Origin: Mesonia oceanica
Lineage (GTDB): Bacteria; Bacteroidota; Bacteroidia; Flavobacteriales; Flavobacteriaceae
Length of the DNA stretch: 64,000 nucleotides
Assembly: GCF_902499555.1 (NCBI RefSeq)
Contig: NZ_CABVMM010000016.1
Location: 1 to 64,000 of the forward strand
Direction of reading: 5' to 3'
Shown: piece after piece, positions 24,957 through 51,739 of the stretch
Position numbering within the stretch: the first letter of the stretch is position 1
How the letters are laid out: each line of letters begins with the position of its first letter
Program-made: the position numbers and the translations under genes
The notes under the pieces: model-generated
Told to the model about the DNA's origin: nothing
What the model saw: only the letters and a program-made list of their open reading frames with translations
Database searches by the model: none

Positions 24957-26081
24957 ATGAAAACCTTCAAATCTGGTACCTACATAAACCAAGGTACACA
25001 TAAAAGCTTTCAACCTACTAAAATAAATCAACAATGGACAATTGAAGATATGGAGGTATTAGCTCTTTTAAGTCAAGCTGATAGACAACTAGGAAGACTA
25101 GATATGTATTCAGAACACATTCCAAATATCGATTTATTTATCAGAATGCACGTTTTAAAAGAAGCAACACAATCAAGTAAAATTGAGGGAACAAAAACAA
25201 ATATAGAAGATGCTTTATTAGATAAGGAAGATGTAAATGATGAAAAACGAGATGATTGGGAAGAGGTACAAAACTATATCGAAGCATTAAATTCTGCTAT
25301 CAAAAGTTTAAAAAAACTACCTTTTTCCTCTAGATTAATACGTGAAACACATAGAATATTATTGCAAGGAGTTAGAGGAAAGCATAAACTTCCTGGAGAA
25401 TTTAGAAGCAGTCAAAACTGGATTGGAGGAGCAAGTATTAATGACGCCACGTTTATTCCACCTATACATACGACTGTAAATGAATATATGGGAGATTTAG
25501 AGAATTTTGCTCATAATTCCCAATCATTTTTTCCTGATTTATTAAAAATTGCTTTAATTCACTACCAATTTGAAACTATTCATCCATTTTTAGACGGTAA
25601 TGGAAGAGTTGGTCGATTAATGATTATATTGTATTTAGTTGAAAAGGGAATACTAAAAAAGCCTATTCTCTATCTCTCTGATTTTTTTGAAAGAAACAGA
25701 ATGCTTTATTATGACAACCTAACAAGAGTTAGAGAAAAAAATGATTTAAATCAATGGTTTAAGTTCTTCTTAGTTGGTGTAATTGAAACTGCAAAAAACG
25801 GAATAAACACATTTGAGAGTATTTTAAAACTACAAAAAGAAGTTGAATTTAAATTACAAACCTTAGGAAGTCGTTCACACAATGCGCAATTGATTTTAAA
25901 TCATCTTTACCAAAGACCAATTATTGATGCTCAAAAAGTTAAAGATTTGACAGGCTTATCATTACCTTCGGTTTACAAATTAATAGAAGAACTTGAAAAA
26001 TTAGAAATATTAAATGAAATAACTGGAGGAAAAAGAGGAAGAATATATTTATTCGGAGAATATACTAAACTATTTAAATAA
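24957..26081 (+). CDS. Fic family AMP-transferase with C-terminal winged helix
   Basis: 374 residues. The inhibitory motif SSKIEGT (about 72-78, S/TxxxEG) lies before the Fic core, making it a class II Fic protein. The active site is HPFLDGNGRVGRLM (about residues 205-218), a full HxFx(D/E)GNGRxxR. The C-terminal about 90 residues are a winged helix (IIDAQKVKDLTGLSLPSVYK). Fic enzymes transfer AMP to target proteins; this inhibitor-containing, HTH-bearing form is common as a lone gene in Bacteroidota. Confidence 0.92.
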   Translation: MKTFKSGTYINQGTHKSFQPTKINQQWTIEDMEVLALLSQADRQLGRLDMYSEHIPNIDLFIRMHVLKEATQSSKIEGTKTNIEDALLDKEDVNDEKRDDWEEVQNYIEALNSAIKSLKKLPFSSRLIRETHRILLQGVRGKHKLPGEFRSSQNWIGGASINDATFIPPIHTTVNEYMGDLENFAHNSQSFFPDLLKIALIHYQFETIHPFLDGNGRVGRLMIILYLVEKGILKKPILYLSDFFERNRMLYYDNLTRVREKNDLNQWFKFFLVGVIETAKNGINTFESILKLQKEVEFKLQTLGSRSHNAQLILNHLYQRPIIDAQKVKDLTGLSLPSVYKLIEELEKLEILNEITGGKRGRIYLFGEYTKLFK

Positions 26082-26999: not shown

Positions 27000-27099
27000 T
27001 ACTGAATAAAATACAACTTGTGGGGTTATAAGTATCCGTGTACGTGTTGCTGAAAAAGGAAAAGTTGTCTTATTGGACTACTTTTTTTACATTTGTACT

Positions 27100-27441
27100 A
27101 TGAATAAAAAACGGGAACTTTATTTTTTCAAAAATTACTTTGAGGAATTTTACGAAGCCCAAGCTGATAAAGTAAAGAAGAAAATTATTTGGACTTTAAA
27201 GGTAATTGAAGAAATTGATCGAATTCCCGATATTTATTTAAAACATTTGAAAAACACGACTGGTCTCTACGAAATAAGAGTCCAGGTTGGAAATAACATT
27301 TTCAGAATTTTCTGCTTTTTCGACTTGGATAATATTGTGGTTGTTGGTAACGGATTTCAAAAGAAAACGCAAAAAACACCAAAACAACAAATTGAAAGAG
27401 CAGAACAAATAAAAAGAGAATACTATGAAAGCAAAAAATAA
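27100..27441 (+). CDS. RelE/HigB-like toxin (Gp49/DUF891 type)
   Basis: 113 residues from ATG 27100. Core segments YFEEFYEAQADKVKKKIIWT, LKNTTGLYEIRVQVGNNIFR and IFCFFDLDNIVVVGNGFQKK, then TQKTPKQQIERA, are typical of the HigB-like Gp49 toxins, which cleave mRNA on the ribosome. The TACATTTG box (27088-27095) ends only 4 bases before the ATG, so initiation may be leaderless. Toxin-first order with a 17-base overlap into the antitoxin gene. A paralogous pair lies at 36 kb. Confidence 0.88.
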   Translation: MNKKRELYFFKNYFEEFYEAQADKVKKKIIWTLKVIEEIDRIPDIYLKHLKNTTGLYEIRVQVGNNIFRIFCFFDLDNIVVVGNGFQKKTQKTPKQQIERAEQIKREYYESKK

Positions 27442-27733
27442 AAACCTGAAGAGTCTTGACCAGTTTGTCGATGAAAAGGTGGGAGAAAGAGGAACTGAAA
27501 AACGAGAGGCATTTGAAACAGAATATGACGCTTTCAAACTTGGTGTATTGATTCAGCAAGCCAGAGAGGATAAAGGTCTTACTCAAGAACAATTGGCAGA
27601 ATTAGCAGGAACAAACAAATCCTATATTTCAAAATTAGAAAGAAATTTAAAAGACATTCGATTTTCCACATTACAGAGAATTATCAACGAAGGATTAGGT
27701 GGACATTTAGATATTTCTATCAAATTTAAATAA
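27425..27733 (+). CDS. XRE antitoxin of the Gp49-type pair
   Basis: 102 residues with an XRE helix-turn-helix (about 38-90: IQQAREDKGLTQEQLAELAG, then TNKSYISKLERN). The overlap with the toxin gene implies coupled translation. Its counterpart at 36322-36612 shares the N-terminal EKVGERGTEKREAFE/EKGTERRDELD segment and the GLGGHLDISI/GLGGKVKISI ending, so the two loci are paralogous. Confidence 0.88.
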   Translation: MKAKNKNLKSLDQFVDEKVGERGTEKREAFETEYDAFKLGVLIQQAREDKGLTQEQLAELAGTNKSYISKLERNLKDIRFSTLQRIINEGLGGHLDISIKFK

Positions 27734-32811: not shown

Positions 32812-32871
32812 TAAAGTATAAATAAGATTGATGTTTTTATACAATTTTTGTGTGTAATTAAAACCGATAAA

Positions 32872-33930
32872 ATGGAAATAGAAAAACTAATGACTTACCA
32901 AGAAGTTGTAGATTCTTTAAATAAGAAAAAAAGAAAAAAGCATTTATTATTTGGCAATGGATTTAGTATGGCTTTTGATAACAGTATTTTCTCGTATAAT
33001 GCATTAAGCAAATTTATAGAAGATAGTGGTGACCCAATGGTTGTAAAACTTTTCGAACGACTTAATACGAAGAATTTTGAATTAATAATGCAACAACTTG
33101 ATAACTTTTGTGAAATCGCTGACCTATTTAGTAATGATAAAACTTTAGTACCGAAGATAAAAGCAGTTACGGAACAGTTAAAAAAAAGTTTAATAGATGC
33201 AGTAAAAGAGCTACATCCTGAACACGTCTTCAAAATTCCTGATGAAAAAAGCGAATCTTGTATGAAATTTTTACAAGAGTATCTTTCTCGAGACGGATTG
33301 GTATTTTCAACAAATTACGATTTGCTTCTGTATTGGGTTTTAATGAGAAATCAAGTCAAAAATGCAATCGATGGATTTGGTCGAGATTTAGAAACTGATT
33401 TAGATAGTGGAGAATTCATTCCATCAGAGGAATTGGAATATTCCGAATTGAGATGGGGGAAATATAAAGAAGAAATGACCATATTCCATCTTCACGGAAC
33501 TTTGCCAATTTTTGATACCGGAATTAATATAGTAAAAGTGGAATACGATAACGCTCATTATCTTCTCGAAAATGTAAAGGAAAGAATTGACAATAAAGAA
33601 TATCCCATTTTTGTTACTGCTGGCAATGGAGAAGAAAAACTTAACCATATAATGCACAATAAATATTTAACTCATTGTTATGACCAATTATGTGCTATTG
33701 AGGGTTCGCTTATAACATTCGGTTTTAATTTTGGAAAATATGACTACCACATAATAAATGCCGTGAACAAAGCGGCTAAAATGGGGAAAAAAGTTAAGGA
33801 CAAACTTTGGAGTGTTTACATTGGAGTTTATTCCGATGAAGATTTGGAATATATTAATGAAATTAAAGACAAATTCAAATGCAAAGTAACACCATACAAT
33901 GCACGAACAGTTAACATTTGGAATAATTAA
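32872..33930 (+). CDS. DUF4917 family protein with SIR2-like Rossmann fold
   Basis: 352 residues from ATG 32872. Segments HLLFGNGFSMAFD (about 24-36), FSTNYDLLLYW (about 144-154) and FHLHGTL (about 205-211) follow the order seen in SIR2-like proteins: nucleotide loop, STNYD, LHG. A C-terminal FGFNFGKYDYHII follows. DUF4917 is a distant SIR2-like family often found alone in genomic islands and suspected of NAD-related defence functions. Placed in an island of toxins and nucleases behind a portable promoter, a phage-defence role is plausible but unproved. Confidence 0.75.
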   Translation: MEIEKLMTYQEVVDSLNKKKRKKHLLFGNGFSMAFDNSIFSYNALSKFIEDSGDPMVVKLFERLNTKNFELIMQQLDNFCEIADLFSNDKTLVPKIKAVTEQLKKSLIDAVKELHPEHVFKIPDEKSESCMKFLQEYLSRDGLVFSTNYDLLLYWVLMRNQVKNAIDGFGRDLETDLDSGEFIPSEELEYSELRWGKYKEEMTIFHLHGTLPIFDTGINIVKVEYDNAHYLLENVKERIDNKEYPIFVTAGNGEEKLNHIMHNKYLTHCYDQLCAIEGSLITFGFNFGKYDYHIINAVNKAAKMGKKVKDKLWSVYIGVYSDEDLEYINEIKDKFKCKVTPYNARTVNIWNN

Positions 33931-35984: not shown

Positions 35985-36320
35985 GTAAGGGAGGTTATAG
36001 CGTACAAACATTATTTCGAAGAATTTCTTTTGGCTCAACCAAATAAAGTTCAGGACAAAATATATAAAGTCATCGAAATAATTGAAACCTATGAAAGAGT
36101 TCCTTCTAATTATCTAAAAGCATTAAAGGGAACCTATAGACTTTACGAAGCAAGAATTAAGCTTAGTTCGAATATTTGGCGGGTCTTTTGCTTCTTCGAT
36201 AAAGGAAAGCTTGTTATTCTCTTAAACGGATTTCAGAAAAAAACACAGAAAACACCGAAAAAGGAAATTGATAAAGCGCTGATTTTGATGAAAATGTATT
36301 TTCAAGAAAAAAATAAATAA
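35985..36320 (+). CDS. RelE/HigB-like toxin (Gp49 type) with a degenerate start
   Basis: The frame encodes VREVIAYKHYFEEFLLAQPN followed by the Gp49 toxin core (LKGTYRLYEARIKLSSNIWR, FCFFDKGKLVILLNGFQKK). Paralogous to the 27100 toxin. A Shine-Dalgarno-like AAGGAG (35973-35978) is placed 6 bases before codon 35985, but that codon is GTA, not a standard start. The first usable start is TTG at 36030, which would remove 15 N-terminal residues shared with the family. The toxin may be weakly made or inactivated. Confidence 0.75.
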   Translation, partial: VREVIAYKHYFEEFLLAQPNKVQDKIYKVIEIIETYERVPSNYLKALKGTYRLYEARIKLSSNIWRVFCFFDKGKLVILLNGFQKKTQKTPKKEIDKALILMKMYFQEKNK

Positions 36321-36321
36321 A

Positions 36322-36612
36322 ATGGATACTAAAAGCTGGAAAGAAATAAAAGATACGGTTTACGGAGAAAAAGGAACAGAACGCAGAGATGAACTGGACA
36401 GAGATTTTGAGTCTTTTAAAATCGGACTGCTTTTAAGAAAAGCCAGAGAAGATAAAAATTTGACCCAGGAACAACTCGCAGCATTAGTCGACAAAAAACG
36501 GACTTATATTTCGAGGGTGGAAAATAACGGAAGTAATTTAACGCTAAAAACACTTTACGACATCGTTGAAAAAGGACTTGGCGGGAAAGTAAAAATATCA
36601 ATCGAAGTATAA
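36322..36612 (+). CDS. XRE antitoxin paired with the 35985 toxin
   Basis: 96 residues with an XRE helix-turn-helix (LLRKAREDKNLTQEQLAALV, then DKKRTYISRVENN). The GLGGKVKISIEV ending matches the antitoxin at 27425-27733. Begins one base after the toxin stop. If the toxin start is indeed broken, the antitoxin might survive as an orphan that can cross-talk with the paralogous locus. Confidence 0.87.
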   Translation: MDTKSWKEIKDTVYGEKGTERRDELDRDFESFKIGLLLRKAREDKNLTQEQLAALVDKKRTYISRVENNGSNLTLKTLYDIVEKGLGGKVKISIEV

Positions 36613-41074: not shown

Positions 41075-41088
41075 AATAAATAGTAATG

Positions 41089-41358
41089 ATGAAGGCAATA
41101 ACAATTTCCACGCTGCGTAAGAATATAAAAAAACATTTCGACTATGTTTCAAAGTCAATGGGAGTAATCGTTGTACCAAGAACTAAAGGAGATGATGCTG
41201 TAGTTATAATGTCTATTAGCGAGTATAATTCATTAAAAGAAACCGAACACCTATTATCTACAAAAGCCAATAGAAATAGACTAATGGAATCTATTGAACA
41301 AATGGAAAAAGGAGAGTTAATTGAATATAATGATGAAGAAATAGAATTAGCTCAATAA
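41089..41358 (+). CDS. yefM: YefM/Phd-type antitoxin
   Basis: 89 residues from ATG 41089 ([12 protein letters not shown]); the ATG one codon earlier is equally possible. The N-terminal Phd/YefM fold shows [20 protein letters not shown] and [20 protein letters not shown]. An acidic C-terminal tail binds the toxin. It abuts the yoeB start without a gap. Confidence 0.93.
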
Positions 41359-41637
41359 ATGAATATCGTTTTTACGACACACGGATGGGAAGATTTTACA
41401 TACTGGTTAGAAAATGACGCTGATACTGCAATTAAAATAAAAAACTTATTAAAGGAAATCAAATCAAACCCTTTTAAAGGAATAGGAAAACCAGAACCTT
41501 TAAAACACGGACTTAAAGGTTTTTGGTCAAGAAGAATAACAGGTGAACACAGGTTGGTTTATAAAGTATCTGGGAAAAAAGGCATTGACCAAAAATGCAC
41601 GATAATTCAGTGTAGATTTCATTACGATGATAAATAA
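41359..41637 (+). CDS. yoeB: YoeB-type mRNA interferase toxin
   Basis: 92 residues. Family landmarks are WEDFTYWLENDADTAIKIKN, the catalytic Glu region IGKPEPLKHGLKGFWSRRIT, then GEHRLVYKV and the C-terminal CRFHYDDK with the catalytic His. YoeB cleaves mRNA at the ribosomal A site. Complete and probably functional. Confidence 0.94.
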   Translation: MNIVFTTHGWEDFTYWLENDADTAIKIKNLLKEIKSNPFKGIGKPEPLKHGLKGFWSRRITGEHRLVYKVSGKKGIDQKCTIIQCRFHYDDK

Positions 41638-45669: not shown

Positions 45670-45924
45670 ATGAATACAAAGCTGACGTTAACAATCGAGC
45701 AGGAAGTCATTAAAAAGGCAAAAGAATATGCGAAAGATAAAAATCGCAGCTTATCAGATATTATCGAAAATTATTTGAAAATGCTGACTAAAGAAGAACA
45801 CAAAGAAATAGCCAAAAAGAATAATCCGGTTGTAAAGTCATTAAAAGGATCTTTTAAAATCCCTAAAAAAGAAATGGATTATAAAAAAGAATTAAGACAG
45901 CGCTTAGACGAAAAATATTCTTAA
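45670..45924 (+). CDS. DUF6364 family antitoxin
   Basis: 84 residues with a ribbon-helix-helix N-terminus (KLTLTIEQEVIKKAKEYAKD, then NRSLSDIIENYL) and a charged tail (SLKGSFKIPKKEMDYKKELR) that matches DUF6364 antitoxins. The stop overlaps the PIN toxin start by one base (TAATGG). A GGAG sequence lies 5 bases before its ATG. Confidence 0.88.
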   Translation: MNTKLTLTIEQEVIKKAKEYAKDKNRSLSDIIENYLKMLTKEEHKEIAKKNNPVVKSLKGSFKIPKKEMDYKKELRQRLDEKYS

Positions 45925-46346
45925 TGGATAAAGTTCTTATTGATACCGACGTCATCCTGGATTTCTTTTTTGATCGTGAACCCTTTGCGGCATTTGCCAC
46001 AGAAGTTTTTAATTTATGTGAAGAGAACAAGATAAATGGATTTACTACGCCAGTTATCATTTGCAATGTGTATTATTTATTAAGGAAATCGGCCAAACAC
46101 GAAATCATAATTGAAAAAATAAAGCAGCTCTTAACGATAATAGATATCATAAAAATAGATAAAGAAGCCGTTTTTGGAGCTTTAAATTCTAATTTTAAAG
46201 ATTTTGAGGATGCATTACAAAATTTCTCAGCTATAGAGAATGATGAAATAAAAATAATACTAACTCGAAATATCAAAGATTTTAAGAAAAGTGAACTTGC
46301 CGTTTTAACTCCGGAAACCTATTTAAAAGGAAACCCCAGTGAATAA
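45924..46346 (+). CDS. PIN-domain toxin (VapC-like)
   Basis: 140 residues. PIN acidic residues appear in VLIDTDVILDFFFDREPF (Asp near 8), and in the central helix and DFEDALQNFSAIENDEIKII (Asp/Glu/Asp). The conserved ILTRNIKDFKKS follows. PIN toxins are RNases acting on tRNA or rRNA. Full catalytic set appears present. Confidence 0.9.
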   Translation: MDKVLIDTDVILDFFFDREPFAAFATEVFNLCEENKINGFTTPVIICNVYYLLRKSAKHEIIIEKIKQLLTIIDIIKIDKEAVFGALNSNFKDFEDALQNFSAIENDEIKIILTRNIKDFKKSELAVLTPETYLKGNPSE

Positions 46347-46389
46347 GCATCTTATTAAACCAAAAAGCTAGTTCTACCTTAAACACCAA

Positions 46390-46864
46390 ATGAAACTATT
46401 TCCTATCAATAAATATGAGCTTAAACTAAAAAGAGAAAGTTCGAAGGCCTTATCAGAGCTAGAAAATAAAACCCTATCAAAAGAACAGTTTGTTACCCAA
46501 TGGAATAATCAGGCGTTCATTGGAAAAGTTGGAAAAGATGAATTTGAGTTGATACCTTCAAAAAAGCTAATCGGACAAATATGTGTTCTAAAAGGTAAAT
46601 TTGAAAATGAAAAAGGAAAAAGGAAGCTTAGAAATAAGGACAGGAAAAATCTTTAGAATCATTTTTTTAGCCGTTACGTTGTTTTCGTTTTCCGGAATAA
46701 TTACTGTAATAATTCAAACGAAATGGTCAGTTATTGTTCCACTTGTTTTGATAATTATAATTGCAAGATTCGTTTTTCTGGAATTGGGTTTTAGACTTGT
46801 TTCTAAAAACGCACTAAATAAATTAACAGCAATTATCGGGATTAAAAAGTTGCATAAAAAATAG
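46390..46864 (+). pseudogene. Small membrane-protein gene broken by a 7-bp duplication
   Basis: ATG 46390 reads MKLFPINKYELKLKRESSKA to LKGKFENEKG and then loses frame. The rest, GSLEIRTGKIFRIIFLAVTL with a second hydrophobic helix (WSVIVPLVLIIIIARFVFLE), is in the next frame and ends at 46864. Between them GAAAAAG is present twice in tandem (46609-46615 and 46616-46622). Removing one copy restores a single about 156-residue protein with two membrane helices. Family unrecognised. Confidence 0.7.
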
Positions 46865-46984
46865 TGAGGCTATCACAGCCTTTTTAAGACATTACCCCTA
46901 ACTTTCCCTTAAAAAATAAAATGAGTCAGATAGATTGATTTTGAGAAGTATAATGAAGCAAAATTGTATTGATAATTTAATTTT

Positions 46985-47045
46985 AGTTACTATTCTCGAT
47001 ACAAAAATTTTAACCGATTTTTACTCCAATTGAAGGTCTTGAAGT
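46985..47045 (-). repeat. Inverted fragment of the long repeat unit
   Basis: CTCGATACAAAAATTTTAAC and the following bases through TTGAAGGTCTTGAAGT are a diverged reverse complement of the unit at about 28385-28445 and 31340-31400. It is the only clearly inverted copy seen. Confidence 0.55.
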
Positions 47046-47105
47046 AAAACAGTAAAGTGTATCAGAGGTTACTATAATAAAAAAACAAACTTTAAAACTT
47101 AGAAA

Positions 47106-47888
47106 ATGGGCCTATTCAACCTTTTTAAAAAGAACAAAACACAATCGACTTTTCCAGAAAATGAACTGGAAAAAAGTTTAATAAAAGCCTCTTCAGACGT
47201 TTCGGCCCGAAGTGAATTCTACACCAAATTACTATGGAATGAACTCATTGTATTGACCAGCGGACACAACCCATCACAGGAAGGAAGAAGAACCTTAGAG
47301 GAAGATACTGAAGTTCAATTTGTCACCTTTAAAAACGGACAAATTCCCGTATTTACCACAACCAATAGAATTTTTGATAAAGGCATTATCAAAGAGCAAG
47401 TACCATTTATGGCAATGAAAGGCCAGGACCTATTTCAATTGACCAAAGGGGCCACACTTGTATTAAATCCGTATTCAGATTACGGCAAAGAATTGATGCC
47501 GCAAGAAATTGAAAACCTTTTAAACGGTTCTATTTTTCAGCAAACCCATCAAACCGAAATCACCAAAGACACCCAGGTGTTAATCGGCCAACCCGCAACC
47601 TATCCCAGCCAATTGGTCAAAGCCCTGGCTCAACTCTTTAAAGAAGAACCAAGCGTAAAATCTGCCTATCTGGCAAGCATCAAAACGGACCATACAGAAC
47701 ATCAGCCCCATTTAATTATTGGGATTGATGTAGAAGGAAGTATGTCGTCTATTTCTGGGAAAGCCGGTGCGCTCGCAGAACAAATGATAGGAAAAAATGA
47801 AATCATCGATTTTATAAAAATAGAAGAAAACAATAGCATATCTGCCTATTTTCTCGATCAAACCCAAGCCTTTTACCAACGGAAATAA
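47106..47888 (+). CDS. sseB: SseB-like protein (enhanced serine sensitivity family)
   Basis: 260 residues. N-terminal SseB domain (NELEKSLIKASSDVSARSEF, EDTEVQFVTFKNGQIPVFTT) and C-terminal SseB domain (LVKALAQLFKEEPSVKSAYL to LIIGIDVEGSMSS). E. coli SseB overexpression alters serine sensitivity; the actual role is unknown, and in other bacteria SseB-like proteins are linked to secretion loci. Nothing of that sort is nearby. Confidence 0.8.
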   Translation: MGLFNLFKKNKTQSTFPENELEKSLIKASSDVSARSEFYTKLLWNELIVLTSGHNPSQEGRRTLEEDTEVQFVTFKNGQIPVFTTTNRIFDKGIIKEQVPFMAMKGQDLFQLTKGATLVLNPYSDYGKELMPQEIENLLNGSIFQQTHQTEITKDTQVLIGQPATYPSQLVKALAQLFKEEPSVKSAYLASIKTDHTEHQPHLIIGIDVEGSMSSISGKAGALAEQMIGKNEIIDFIKIEENNSISAYFLDQTQAFYQRK

Positions 47889-47968
47889 AAAGAGTAGGGA
47901 ATAGGTGTGTCATTATTTTAAAATCTAATTTAAACTAATTACCTCTTAAAAGTTTTCTATTTTACGGA

Positions 47969-48006
47969 AAACCGTAAGGCACAAGTGTAGTTGTTAACTA
48001 GTTTTA
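47969..48006 (+). promoter_or_regulatory. Portable promoter module E
   Basis: AAACCGTAA (47969-47977), 21 bases, TAGTTTTA (47999-48006). The start codon at 48065 follows 58 bases later. Confidence 0.65.
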
Positions 48007-48064
48007 TTTTAAATAAAATTAGATTGAGTTTCCAGCTTGATAGGTAACATAAAAAAAGGGAAAT

Positions 48065-49054
48065 ATGACGACATTAAAAGGCGCAATGCGCTCGTACGGT
48101 GCAGCTGTAAGAAGAATTGAAAGAGAACAACAACGGCAAGCACGAGAAGCCGCTAAAAGATTTAAAGAGCAACAAAAACTAAAGGAAATTGAGAATGCGC
48201 AGCAAGCTGTTTCTGACTGGCAAAATTATGTCGAAACCATTCAATCTGTTCATAAAAATTGTACCGAACCCATAGATTGGGGACAAATTGAAGAAACAAA
48301 AAAACCAATAAAACCAGCTCTTAAGACTAAAAATGAAAGTATTGCAAAAAATAAATTAAACAGCTTTAAACCATCGTTTTTCGATAAAATTTTTGGCACT
48401 TCTCAAAATAAAATTAACCTGCTTTCCCAACAAGTAGAACAAGCTAAACTAAAAGACAAAGAGGAATTTGATAGTGCTTATAAAAATTATTTAGAGGAGT
48501 TAAGTAGCTGGGAAGAATTGCAAGAGATTAGTGCAGGAATTAAAAGAAAAGACCCCACATCCTATAAAAAAGCACTTCAGTATTTTGACCCCTTTTCAGA
48601 TATTGGAGAATTAGGAACAAAAATCAGTTTCAATTTTGAAGAAAATCACATAGATATTGATTTACACATTAATAGTTTAGATAGCATACCAGATTACGAA
48701 TTGAGGCAAACTTCTACTGGAAAACTATCAAAAAAGAATATGCCCAAAACAAGGTTTAATGAATTATATCAAGACCATATTTGCAGTGCTTCTATGCGAA
48801 TTGCAAGAGAAGTATTCGCTTATTTGCCAATAGACTATGCTAGAATTAATGCGATGGCAAATATCGTAAATACAGCAACCGGTCATTTAGAAGAGCAGCC
48901 CATTTTGTCAGTAATATTTCCGCCTCAAACCATTGAAAGTTTGAATTTAGAAACAATTGATCCTTCAGACAGTATGCGAAATTTTGTTCATAATATGAAC
49001 TTTAGTAAAACAAAAGGATTCTCGGTAATTGAAAAAGTCGAACTGGAAAAATGA
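48065..49054 (+). CDS. Hypothetical protein with N-terminal coiled coil
   Basis: 329 residues. Residues 10-60 are a charged coiled coil (REQQRQAREAAKRFKEQQKL). Residues 110-180 are also helical. The C-terminal half is mixed alpha/beta, with KALQYFDPFSDIGELGTKIS, RQTSTGKLSKKNMPKTRFNE and a final SMRNFVHNMNFSKTKGFSVI. I do not recognise the family. Lone gene with its own portable promoter, just before the HAD-PRTase-DprA-like operon, which has another. It could be a stand-alone defence or regulatory gene. Confidence 0.6.
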   Translation: MTTLKGAMRSYGAAVRRIEREQQRQAREAAKRFKEQQKLKEIENAQQAVSDWQNYVETIQSVHKNCTEPIDWGQIEETKKPIKPALKTKNESIAKNKLNSFKPSFFDKIFGTSQNKINLLSQQVEQAKLKDKEEFDSAYKNYLEELSSWEELQEISAGIKRKDPTSYKKALQYFDPFSDIGELGTKISFNFEENHIDIDLHINSLDSIPDYELRQTSTGKLSKKNMPKTRFNELYQDHICSASMRIAREVFAYLPIDYARINAMANIVNTATGHLEEQPILSVIFPPQTIESLNLETIDPSDSMRNFVHNMNFSKTKGFSVIEKVELEK

Positions 49055-49131
49055 TATGTGTGAATATTGATAAGTTTTCTCAAAACCTCTTATTTAAATA
49101 ATTATTAATAGAAATTTTTTCATTTTACGCT

Positions 49132-49169
49132 AAACCGTAATTAGCGTTGAGTTTTCTTGGTTAGTTTTG
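49132..49169 (+). promoter_or_regulatory. Portable promoter module F
   Basis: AAACCGTAA (49132-49140), 21 bases, TAGTTTTG (49162-49169), the best -7 box among the six copies. It drives the three-gene operon starting at 49236. Confidence 0.7.
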
Positions 49170-49235
49170 TAGATGAATAATAAACTGCTTTTATAGGTTC
49201 TTTAGTGTGAAATAAAAAAATGTAACTATACAGAA

Positions 49236-49796
49236 ATGGAGATAACAAAAGATAAAACCTTATTTTTTGATATGGACGGAACATTGATTGATACGGATTT
49301 TTCAAATTTTTTATCATATGAAAAAGCGATACAATCTGTAATTAAGACAAATGAAAAACTTACTTATAGTCCCAAGAGAAGGTTAAATCGTTTAAACTTA
49401 AGATCCAAATTCCCAAATATTTCCGATTGTGATTATCGAAAAATTGTTATCCTCAAAGAAGAATTTTATAAAGAAAATTTGCATCATACAAAACTAAATA
49501 AGGAAGTTGAGGAAATATTATTACAATATTATAAAACCAACAAATGTGTTCTAGTGACTAATTGTAGGAAAGAAAGGGCAATGCTGACATTGAATTATCA
49601 TAATCTAACTAAAAAGTTTTGTAACTTATTTTTTGGTAATTATTCGGATAATAATAAGAGAATCAACAAATACGAAAACGCTATATCAATTATGGGACTA
49701 TCGCCTCATAATATTATTGTTTTTGAAAATGAAAGTCAAGAAATTGAATATGCTAATAAAGCGGGAATAGTTATGAGTAATATTTTAAGTATTTAG
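49236..49796 (+). CDS. HAD-like phosphatase of a three-gene nucleotide-type operon
   Basis: 186 residues. Motif I FFDMDGTLIDT (Asp12, Asp14), motif II VLVTNC (about residue 108), a Lys in the KYENAISIMG region, and motif IV IIVFENESQEIEYANKAGI, where the usual DD/GD is ENE. A helical cap lies between motifs I and II. Probably a small phosphatase or nucleotidase. It is followed by a phosphoribosyltransferase-like gene after 3 bases, so they act together. Confidence 0.8.
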   Translation: MEITKDKTLFFDMDGTLIDTDFSNFLSYEKAIQSVIKTNEKLTYSPKRRLNRLNLRSKFPNISDCDYRKIVILKEEFYKENLHHTKLNKEVEEILLQYYKTNKCVLVTNCRKERAMLTLNYHNLTKKFCNLFFGNYSDNNKRINKYENAISIMGLSPHNIIVFENESQEIEYANKAGIVMSNILSI

Positions 49797-49799
49797 ATT

Positions 49800-50432
49800 A
49801 TGATACAGTTTACGATTAAACAAAACGATTTTCTTTCTAAAGAAATTGAGGCCTTTTCTCATACAGATTATATAGGCTACGACAGACGTGATGAAATTGA
49901 AAATTATCCGATGTATTTGTTAACTTTAAAGAATGATGTAAATCGTAATTGGAGGGAGTCCTTGCTTAAAGATGCTCAAAAGTCATTACTTGCAGCTCTT
50001 TCTAGTGATCTTCCAGAAATTATAGATAAGATTGAACCAGAAAATTTAACCGTTTGTGTAGTTCCTCGTGCCAAGAAAGAAAATTCATATAGAAAAGATC
50101 AATTACTTTTCAAAGAAACCATCAGAATCGCAGTTAATAAATTAGGAGATGATTTTATAGATGGAACACAATTTATATCAAGACACACAAACACAAAAAC
50201 CACGCACTTAAGACGGCCTATTGATGATTATGATAACGATGGTTCAGAACCATATCCAGGTATTAGTGGAAATACCTGTAATTTTTCAGAAAATCTAAGA
50301 GGTCGTGATATCCTTTTGATAGATGATATCTATACGGAAAATATAAATATCGATGAAGATATGATACAAGCTCTCTTGGATTGTGAAGCAAATTCAGTTA
50401 CCTTTTACGCTGTTGGAAAAACTATTCATTAA
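49800..50432 (+). CDS. Phosphoribosyltransferase-like protein
   Basis: 210 residues. DILLIDDIYTENINIDEDMI (about 170-189) is the type I PRTase PRPP loop with the two Asp residues, though the usual TG is replaced by EN. VCVVPRAKKENSYRK and HLRRPIDDYDNDGSEPYPG form the flanking active-site and hood regions. ComF-like PRTases have similar layouts. Substrate unknown. Middle gene of the HAD-PRTase-DprA-like operon; 31 bases separate it from the third gene. Confidence 0.75.
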   Translation: MIQFTIKQNDFLSKEIEAFSHTDYIGYDRRDEIENYPMYLLTLKNDVNRNWRESLLKDAQKSLLAALSSDLPEIIDKIEPENLTVCVVPRAKKENSYRKDQLLFKETIRIAVNKLGDDFIDGTQFISRHTNTKTTHLRRPIDDYDNDGSEPYPGISGNTCNFSENLRGRDILLIDDIYTENINIDEDMIQALLDCEANSVTFYAVGKTIH

Positions 50433-50463
50433 TAGCTAGTATTTATTATTTGATAATCACAAA

Positions 50464-51462
50464 ATGAAGTATACGGATAACGCAATAAATATAATAACTG
50501 CCAAATCTTATAAAGGAATAGGTAATGCTTGGTTGGTTAAAAATTTGAAAGGAAATGAAGATGTGAGTACAATCGTTTCTCTTCTAAATAATAAAATTAG
50601 TGAGAAAACCAGTATTGCAGAATTTAAGCATTTGAAAGAAATGTTTGAGAAAAAACTTAGTGATAAATTTCAGGATTTCTGTGATGGTATTGTAGCTATG
50701 GGTGATAATGATTTTCCTCAATATCGTGGAAATGTAAAAGATAGTGAAAAACCTGTTTTCCTTTATTATAAAGGAGATATTAATCTTTTACGTATTGAGA
50801 ATAAAAATATATCTGTAATAGGGCTTTTAAGTCCTGATGAAGATATAGAAGAAAGGGAAAGAAATGTTGTTTCGGAATTTGTAAAAAATGGAGCTACAAT
50901 AGTTAGTGGATTAGCATTAGGCTGTGATAGTATTTCTCACAAAGAAGCTTTAGATAGAAACGGCAAAACAGTGGCTATTTTACCGAGCCCACTTTATAAT
51001 ATTATGCCTGCTACAAATAAAGGTCTTGCTTTCCAAATTGTTGAAGAAGGTGGATTGCTTATAACTGAATATGGTAATGATTTTAAAAATGGATTGGAAT
51101 TAAGTAGTCGTTATAAAGAACGTGATCGGTTACAAGCTTTATTTTGTGAAACAATAGTATTGTCTGCAAGTTATGCTCAAAATAGTGCAGAAAGATGGAA
51201 ATTATTTGGTGAAAAATTAGATAGTGGGGCTCGTTTAGCAATGGAATATGCCAAAAAATATAATATTCCAAGGGCAGTTATGTATGATAAAAATCTTGAT
51301 GATTGTAATCCAATGTTTGATTTAAATCGAGACTTGATTAAGGAACAAAAAGAAATTACAGTAATTGATCAAATTAATATTTCGGAAATTGTAAATAAGA
51401 TTATGGATAACAGTAGTAAAATTAAAAAGTTAAATACCGTTCAAGGAAATTTATTTCATTAA
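50464..51462 (+). CDS. DprA/SLOG-like Rossmann-fold protein
   Basis: 332 residues. An N-terminal helical part is followed by a DprA-type domain. It shows ISVIGLLSPDEDIEERERNV (about 116-135), GATIVSGLALGCDSISHKEA (matching DprA's SGLARGID), VAILPSPLYNIMP (DprA's VLxxGxDxxYP) and EGGLLITEYG. RYKERDRLQALFCETIVLSA replaces the RNRIIAGLS helix. It lacks the C-terminal winged helix of competence DprA. Such SLOG-type domains bind nucleotides and occur in conflict systems. Together with the HAD and PRTase genes it suggests a nucleotide-based defence module. Confidence 0.75.
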   Translation: MKYTDNAINIITAKSYKGIGNAWLVKNLKGNEDVSTIVSLLNNKISEKTSIAEFKHLKEMFEKKLSDKFQDFCDGIVAMGDNDFPQYRGNVKDSEKPVFLYYKGDINLLRIENKNISVIGLLSPDEDIEERERNVVSEFVKNGATIVSGLALGCDSISHKEALDRNGKTVAILPSPLYNIMPATNKGLAFQIVEEGGLLITEYGNDFKNGLELSSRYKERDRLQALFCETIVLSASYAQNSAERWKLFGEKLDSGARLAMEYAKKYNIPRAVMYDKNLDDCNPMFDLNRDLIKEQKEITVIDQINISEIVNKIMDNSSKIKKLNTVQGNLFH

Positions 51463-51523: not shown

Positions 51524-51739
51524 CTAAAAATCCACCAACTTTTTTAAAGGAACTTCTAAGGCTTTAGCAACTTCTAAAAGCGAGTAGAGGGTTGGATTTA
51601 CTTTTCCATTTTCCAGTTTTTCAATTGCCTGTCGGTCTTTTGCACAGGCACGGGCCAAATCTGATTGGCTCCATCCCTTTTGACTTCTTAATTCAACAAT
51701 ACGTTGACCAATTTTATTTTTAAGCTGCTCTTTATCCAC
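51524..51739 (-). CDS. XRE regulator divergent from SymE-like toxin
   Basis: 71 residues, a single XRE domain (RIVELRSQKGWSQSDLARAC, then AKDRQAIEKLENGKVNPTLY). Divergent from an intact SymE-like gene, as at 36763-37252. Three operator copies lie between them. Probable repressor/antitoxin. Confidence 0.9.
   Translation of the reverse strand: MDKEQLKNKIGQRIVELRSQKGWSQSDLARACAKDRQAIEKLENGKVNPTLYSLLEVAKALEVPLKKLVDF

What the first reader, a model, noticed from the sequence alone, without database searches (positions are those of the whole stretch)
49236..51462. HAD - phosphoribosyltransferase - DprA/SLOG-like operon: candidate nucleotide-based defence system
Three tightly packed genes share one portable promoter. 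A PRTase with an altered PRPP loop (TEN in place of T-x-G) and a HAD phosphatase with an unusual motif IV could make or break a phosphoribosyl nucleotide. The DprA-like protein lacks the competence winged helix and could sense that nucleotide or DNA. SLOG-type Rossmann proteins are known members of nucleotide-centred conflict systems. The operon sits in an island of toxins and nucleases. I cannot confirm whether this exact three-gene set has been described.
Basis: partly seen in the sequence, partly recalled or inferred. Interest (0 to 1): 0.85.

Follow-up and report, generated by a model that had tools for sequence, protein, structure and literature searches.

The report
Three-gene ShosTA-like defence toxin operon
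Three adjacent bacterial genes (a phosphatase, an enzyme related to a known phage-defence toxin, and a DNA-binding-type partner) form a conserved, transferable unit that looks like a split version of an already known toxin-antitoxin phage defence called ShosTA.

Summary
The three ORFs are real and travel together. A PRTase signature scanned over one genome for each of 84,980 species gave 78 loci in 15 named phyla. A DprA-like gene adjoins the PRTase in 76 of 78 (the other 2 are cut by contig ends). A HAD gene adjoins in 54 of 78, is absent in 8 and undecidable in 16. Relatives found without the motif scan (pSYLB, G249, G453) also have all three parts; in G249 HAD and PRTase are one protein. 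The genome carries separate dprA- and comF-like genes elsewhere.

It is not a new kind. The predicted PRTase fold matches ShosT, toxin of the ShosTA phage-defence system, and ComF, and some ShosT proteins already carry a HAD domain. I read the operon as a three-gene ShosTA-like toxin-antitoxin/defence module: PRTase toxin, DprA-like antitoxin/sensor, HAD phosphatase serving the toxin reaction. Toxicity, neutralisation and defence are inferred, not tested. PADLOC models do not separate these proteins from housekeeping DprA/ComF. What is new is a widespread separate-gene form with an intact HAD and an unusual PRPP loop.

The parts
49236..49796 (+). HAD-superfamily phosphatase, 186 aa; motif I DMDGT, motif II T108, motif III K145, motif IV FENE
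   Evidence: Pfam HAD_2 2.4e-12; motif residues kept in the family; profile scores 233 bits here and 44.8 bits for the only other match in the genome
49800..50432 (+). ComF/ShosT-type phosphoribosyltransferase, 210 aa, PRPP loop DDIYTENINIDED (probable toxin)
   Evidence: model pLDDT 94.2; Foldseek best matches ShosT and ComF; VIA Z 13.4 ComF and 12.0 ShosT, next 8.7
50464..51462 (+). DprA-like (SLOG/Rossmann) protein without winged helix, 332 aa (probable antitoxin/sensor)
   Evidence: Pfam DNA_processg_A 9.8e-32; model pLDDT 92.8; in one clade with 70 other signature rows, apart from 7 housekeeping-type DprAs
49055..49235 (+). upstream gap: one Bacteroidota-type -7 motif TAGTTTTG at 49162-49169 and a 7-bp inverted repeat 49127-49133/49141-49147; candidate promoter/operator only
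   Evidence: no excess over chance for the -7 motif (consensus recalled)

Best explanation
A three-gene, ShosTA-like toxin-antitoxin module that probably acts in phage defence. Shown by sequence and predicted structure: a ComF/ShosT-class PRTase, a DprA-like protein without winged helix and a HAD phosphatase with intact core motifs form one conserved, horizontally moving unit. Inferred: (1) the PRTase is the toxin and disturbs nucleotide pools or DNA, as reported for ShosT and RqlH; (2) the DprA-like protein binds the PRTase and/or ssDNA, keeps it in check and releases it when a phage changes DNA or transcription; (3) the HAD works on the toxin side, hydrolysing the pyrophosphate or the phosphoribosyl product, and does as a separate enzyme what the HAD part does inside fused ShosT proteins.
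For: DprA-like gene beside the PRTase in 76 of 78 loci and HAD in 54 of 78; HAD-PRTase fusions in G249, L049 and L102, in the ShosT of phage PfAC02a and, with weaker PRTase matches, on Bradyrhizobium, E. coli and Klebsiella plasmids; PRTase fold next to ShosT and ComF; 60 of 60 PRTases match PADLOC ShosT and 49 of 49 DprA-like proteins match ShosA (not specific, see against); related pairs act as toxin-antitoxin or phage defence (passages: PMC9122126, PMC4670107, PMC12593503); rare in relatives, low GC, phyla interleaved in the tree.
Against: No activity was tested. PADLOC scores are lower than for the genome's own DprA-like and ComF-like proteins (144.6 against 205.5; 31.2 against 44.4 bits). 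HAD is absent in 8 of the 62 decidable loci and no HAD was found in several distant pairs. In Deinococcus the HAD is fused to DprA, not to a PRTase. The PRPP loop differs where T165A removes nucleotide binding in ComFC, so PRPP use is uncertain. In G249 the neighbours look like ordinary genes (my reading of the ORFs).
Confidence: 0.6

Rival explanations
1. Same toxin-antitoxin module, but the HAD belongs to the protective side: it destroys the toxic phosphoribosyl product or pyrophosphate and so helps the DprA-like antitoxin.
For: HAD is a separate gene in most loci and is optional (54 with, 8 without); in one Deinococcus plasmid it is fused to DprA; it lies either before the PRTase or after DprA.
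Against: Most fusions seen join HAD to the PRTase; a review reports pyrophosphatase activity in the toxin ShosT itself.
Confidence: 0.2
2. A horizontally spread DNA-uptake/repair or nucleotide-salvage operon built from ComF- and DprA-like parts, with no defence role.
For: ComF is the best VIA match (Z 13.4); DprA and ComF are competence proteins.
Against: The genome has separate dprA- and comF-like genes; the PRTase is missing from nearly all sampled relatives; one copy sits on a plasmid next to Abi-family and Rpn genes; winged helix not found; related pairs are toxin-antitoxins.
Confidence: 0.12

Closest known systems
ShosTA (ShosT PRTase toxin + ShosA DprA-like antitoxin; P2-type system, PDB 8zvb-8zvd, 9vzo)
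   Same: PRTase gene next to DprA-like gene; PRTase fold; DprA-like protein; HAD or HAD remnant linked to the PRTase in PfAC02a and P2_4C9
   Different: HAD and PRTase are separate genes here; HAD motifs intact, against a decayed HAD-like part in the crystallised ShosT; loop DDIYTENINIDED against DDFCTEGNA; 17% identity over 173 aligned residues
PsyrTA / RqlHI
   Same: DprA-like antitoxin paired with a PRTase-bearing toxin (PMC4670107, passages)
   Different: There the PRTase domain is part of a RecQ-like helicase; no helicase domain here
ComF/ComFC competence PRTase
   Same: Closest fold by VIA; acidic pair of the PRPP loop
   Different: ComFC loop is DDIITTGTTL and it has a zinc finger; here no zinc finger in the model region, altered loop, linked HAD and DprA-like genes
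Rst DprA-PRTase system of P2-like phages (Rousset 2022)
   Same: DprA + PRTase pair, protects against T7 and lambda (PMC9122126, passages)
   Different: Described there as two genes; the HAD part is not mentioned in the passages I saw

Membership tests
ShosTA | PRTase gene directly beside a DprA-like gene | tested here: met
   window ORFs; 76 of 78 related loci
ShosTA | PRTase domain with the ShosT fold | tested here: met
   Foldseek ranks 1, 2 and 4 are ShosT; VIA Z 12.0, second to ComF 13.4 and well above the next 8.7
ShosTA | sequence-model match above housekeeping level | tested here: inconclusive
   PADLOC ShosA 144.6 bits against 205.5 for the own DprA-like gene; ShosT 31.2 against 44.4 for the own ComF-like gene; the ShosT model matches in 391 of 395 phylum genomes, so the models do not discriminate
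ShosTA | toxin is one polypeptide with an N-terminal HAD or HAD-like part (as in P2_4C9 and PfAC02a) | tested here: not met
   HAD and PRTase are separate ORFs in the window; so I call it ShosTA-like, not ShosTA proper
ShosTA | PRTase toxicity, neutralisation by the DprA-like protein, phage defence | not testable with these tools
   needs experiments
PsyrTA / RqlHI | PRTase domain fused to a RecQ-like helicase | tested here: not met
   PRTase ORF is 210 aa without helicase match
housekeeping dprA/comF (competence) | present in most relatives; DprA grouping with housekeeping DprAs | tested here: not met
   PRTase in 2 of 395 (order) and 3 of 395 (phylum) genomes, own included, above 28 bits; DprA-like protein outside the clade of 7 housekeeping-type DprAs (support 100)
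retron with PRTase effector | reverse transcriptase beside the PRTase | tested here: not met
   no RT match among the ORFs tested next to the operon (45924-49054 and 51524-51739)

The most novel reading that the evidence does not exclude
A distinct three-enzyme module in which a PRTase with a rebuilt 5'-phosphate loop (T-x-x-x-N-I-D-E-D) no longer makes an ordinary nucleotide but phosphoribosylates an unusual acceptor (for example DNA or a signal nucleotide), with the HAD trimming or erasing the product and the SLOG/DprA-like protein reading it; the fused ShosT with its decayed HAD would then be a derived form of this three-part ancestor.
Probability: 0.15. Interest if true: 0.75.

Novelty: new variant of a known kind. 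Interest (0 to 1): 0.45.

Why it matters
It ties a widespread HAD gene to DprA-PRTase toxin-antitoxin systems. A 2026 paper says that the function of HAD domains in defence is unknown (PMC13092281, passages); here the HAD is a free protein with intact core motifs beside its PRTase, so the two activities can be removed one at a time, which is harder in a fused ShosT. The controls also show that the PADLOC ShosTA models hit housekeeping-type DprA and ComF proteins, a caution for automatic annotation that lacks a context rule.

Tried and rejected
PADLOC match as proof of ShosTA: rejected after the own DprA-like and ComF-like genes scored higher. Viral contigs: no relative by P0002, by alignment A1 or by DNA signature; phage records: no match to the PRTase at E 0.1. 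First genome-contig scan with A1: 85 stretches, no relative. PRTase profile against PDB sequences: nothing credible. Ter-type PRTase_2/3: no Pfam match for the window PRTase. Neighbour enrichment: 141 ORFs taken from the 77 loci other than L046 (near-copy of L095, dropped before the count; at most two ORFs a locus, within 3 kb, 130-900 aa; some loci gave none) matched 128 PADLOC families at E 1e-20, of which the first 25 are shown, nearly all reverse-transcriptase models matching 2 neighbours each; 22 control ORFs beside ShosT-model (ComF-type) loci matched 0. The number of distinct neighbours hit is not given and the control is small, so enrichment is not claimed.

Biases: the 78 loci were found by an exact DNA signature, so the PRTase and its D175, D176, Y178, T179, N183, D185 and E186 are there by construction; D187, the HAD and the DprA-like gene are not. 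G453, found by profile only, has DDLYTKSVNIDED and both partners; G456 carries the same HAD protein as L100. 33 of 78 loci are Bacteroidota, so counts are not independent events. HAD, PRTase and DprA profiles were seeded from three systems. The tree count of HAD presence (4 changes) used 54 rows with HAD and 5 without. The tree was a quick search with several long branches; two rows that I had labelled housekeeping without proof (Cetobacterium, Persicobacter) fell outside the housekeeping clade. 'Housekeeping' for the own dprA- and comF-like genes is my reading of sequence and distribution; no NCBIfam call was made on them. Best match to the DprA-like protein in relatives is a second DprA-like gene of G029 (33%), whose partner genes I did not look for beyond 3.4 kb.

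Full report
What is there. Three + strand ORFs, 49236-49796, 49800-50432 and 50464-51462, lie 3 and 31 nt apart. The first is a HAD phosphatase (Pfam HAD_2 2.4e-12), the third a DprA-like protein (DNA_processg_A 9.8e-32); the second has no significant Pfam match. The stretch is AT-richer than its surroundings (GC 0.291 against 0.342; fourth lowest of 248 windows of its size).

Not housekeeping. The genome has separate dprA-like and comF-like genes on another contig (named by my reading). With the DprA-like protein as query 87 of 99 genomes match (own included), but the best match in another genome is 33% identical (E 1.6e-19, a second DprA-like gene in G029). With a two-row PRTase profile 2 of 395 genomes of the order match, one being the own. 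With the 58-row profile 29 of 395 phylum genomes match, but only the own one, G453 and G456 above 28 bits. The HAD profile gives 233 bits here and 44.8 bits for the only other match in the genome.

Co-occurrence. The three genes stand in the same order on Synechocystis plasmid pSYLB, near an Abi-family and an Rpn gene, with 35%, 48% and 52% identity (HAD, PRTase, DprA). In G249 HAD and PRTase are one 593-residue ORF followed by the DprA-like gene. From the three PRTases I derived the signature DD[IV]YTxxxN[IV]DE and scanned one genome for each of 84,980 species: 78 stretches. All 78 hold a PRTase at the motif, 76 of 78 a DprA-like gene (the other 2 end at a contig end), 54 of 78 a HAD: 46 before the PRTase, 8 after the DprA-like gene. 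Of the 24 without HAD, 8 show enough sequence on both sides to say it is absent (L084 and L101 among these look degraded) and 16 are cut too near. The HADs at both positions share N24, Y28, R49, K74 and R114 in 49 of 49 aligned sequences, so I take them as one family with a moved position; on the DprA tree the order changes at least once and HAD presence at least 4 times (54 rows with, 5 without). All 59 HAD-profile hits of 20 bits or more in the 81 loci lie within 1.15 kb of a PRTase or DprA gene on the same strand. Distances of the three proteins correlate (r 0.71, 0.70, 0.79; 0 of 999 permutations each; 42 loci). The 78 loci come from 15 named phyla (one unassigned) and rows of different phyla are interleaved in the tree, as expected from transfer.

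The enzymes. PRTase: model pLDDT 94.2. Foldseek against PDB puts ShosT first, second and fourth and H. pylori ComF third. VIA gives ComF Z 13.4 (163 residues, 3.1 A), ShosT 12.0 (173 residues, 3.4 A), next 8.7 for a PurF-type enzyme. Invariant residues include P89-R90, R128, T132, T135-H136 and D175-D176. A conserved arginine after strand 2 is described as shared by ComFC-like and mobile-element PRTases (PMC5512222, passages); that it is R90 is my reading. The PRPP loop keeps the acidic pair and T at position 5 and has N at position 9 (all by construction of the scan); position 7 is free (T 31, G 24, S 11, N 6, other 11 of 83), and D-E-D follows. In ComFC the loop is DDIITTGTTL and T165A (position 9) removes nucleotide binding (PMC9005727, passages). 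So binding of the 5'-phosphate is probably altered; whether PRPP is still used is open. HAD: motif I D12 in 48 of 48 with letters and D14 in 49 of 49, motif II T/S in 49 of 49, motif III K in 43 of 49; motif IV is E/D-N in 39 and E/D-D in 10 of 49. DprA-like: Rossmann core kept, no winged helix found; nearest solved structures are ShosA and DprA.

Relation to known systems. P2_4C9 gp41 is identical over its 424 residues to PDB ShosT (8zvb), and gp42 matches ShosA (9vzo) over residues 22-349. gp41 has a weak N-terminal HAD match below the Pfam cut-off and no DxD motif: it looks like a decayed HAD fused to the PRTase. Phage PfAC02a, whose system its authors call ShosTA (PMC11878078, passages), has a HAD with DxD motif fused to the PRTase. 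A Bradyrhizobium plasmid has a HAD ORF with a PRTase match below cut-off beside DprA. An E. coli and a Klebsiella plasmid have one long ORF starting with HAD, then a weak PRTase match, DUF559 and a DEAD helicase. S. copri and S. meliloti plasmids have PRTase-DprA-HAD as three genes. A Deinococcus plasmid has HAD fused to DprA, with no PRTase match in the two ORFs before it. No HAD match was found in the annotated PRTases of a Lactobacillales plasmid, phage Mana and phage phi OH2, nor in the ORF beside DprA in E. coli M11, which has no Pfam match at all; no HAD gene is annotated beside the Streptomyces DprA-ComF pair. Four further plasmids show DprA with no annotated PRTase beside it. These 18 regions were chosen by hand (14 of 151 plasmid and 4 of 27 phage records that match the DprA-like protein, pSYLB counted), so they give no rates. 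HAD is thus a recurrent but not universal partner of DprA-PRTase systems, and the window shows the form with all three parts separate.

Known biology, from passages read: DprA+PRTase in the P2 hotspot protects against T7 and lambda (PMC9122126); the RqlH PRTase domain is genotoxic, D663A removes this, and RqlI needs that domain for binding (PMC4670107); a review says ShosT is a PRTase and a pyrophosphatase that disturbs purine metabolism, ShosA binds DNA and T7 Gp0.7 is a trigger (PMC12593503); ShosTA is named among systems activated by phage Gp32 (PMC10732053). A 2026 paper notes that HAD domains occur in other defence systems, citing Kimelman 2012 and one more work, with unknown function (PMC13092281). 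The primary papers (Kimelman 2012, Sberro 2013, Pu 2025) I did not read; two were asked for and are not held. My ten searches listed no paper on the separate three-gene form by title or abstract start, but that library lacks the key papers, and the HAD link itself is probably known.

Mechanism. Best reading: the PRTase is the toxin, the DprA-like protein the antitoxin and DNA-linked sensor, the HAD the phosphatase arm of the toxin reaction. Fusions to the PRTase favour the toxin side; the one fusion to DprA and the optional presence leave room for a protective role. No activity was tested here.

Limits. PADLOC models cannot decide membership: the own DprA-like and ComF-like proteins score higher than the operon's. 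I call it ShosTA-like because of gene pairing, fold and the DprA tree (signature clade of 71 rows, support 99; 7 housekeeping-type DprAs apart, support 100). Defence-island enrichment was not shown.

Noticed in passing
PADLOC models PDLC03961 (ShosA) and PDLC03962 (ShosT): They match housekeeping-type DprA and ComF proteins, the ShosT model in 391 of 395 phylum genomes and in 13 of 14 control genomes: a likely source of false single-gene annotation.
   Followed up: yes
window 24957-26081: Fic protein matching PADLOC SoFic at 405 bits.
   Followed up: no
window 32848-33930: Protein matching PADLOC candidate defence family PDC-S21 at 368 bits, weakly SIR2.
   Followed up: no
window 45924-46346: PIN-domain protein (Pfam PIN_3 3.8e-18), about 3 kb upstream of the operon, with a small ORF after it; possible toxin-antitoxin pair.
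   Followed up: no
window 27073-27733, 36030-36612, 41086-41637: Pairs of small ORFs that look like toxin-antitoxin pairs (my reading of the translations, no search made).
   Followed up: no
L011 379-2160: HAD-PRTase fusion with a middle stretch repeated twice (KMLIYQ...RIEI.DE.LKRIL..KEGC.L.IQ).
   Followed up: no
L126 3960-6681 and L135 4412-7633: Plasmid proteins annotated as RecQ helicase that begin with a HAD domain, then a weak PRTase match and DUF559, beside DprA: HAD also in a PsyrT-like giant.
   Followed up: partly
L122 3296-4714: HAD fused to DprA in a Deinococcus plasmid, with a helicase and a coiled-coil ORF before it and no PRTase match in them.
   Followed up: partly
L061 5426-6751 and L072 4176-5816: Single open frames that match both the PRTase and the DprA profile: PRTase-DprA fusions or frame joins.
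   Followed up: no
L074 1439-4114: Large ORF that looks like a reverse transcriptase right after the PRTase-DprA pair (translation).
   Followed up: no
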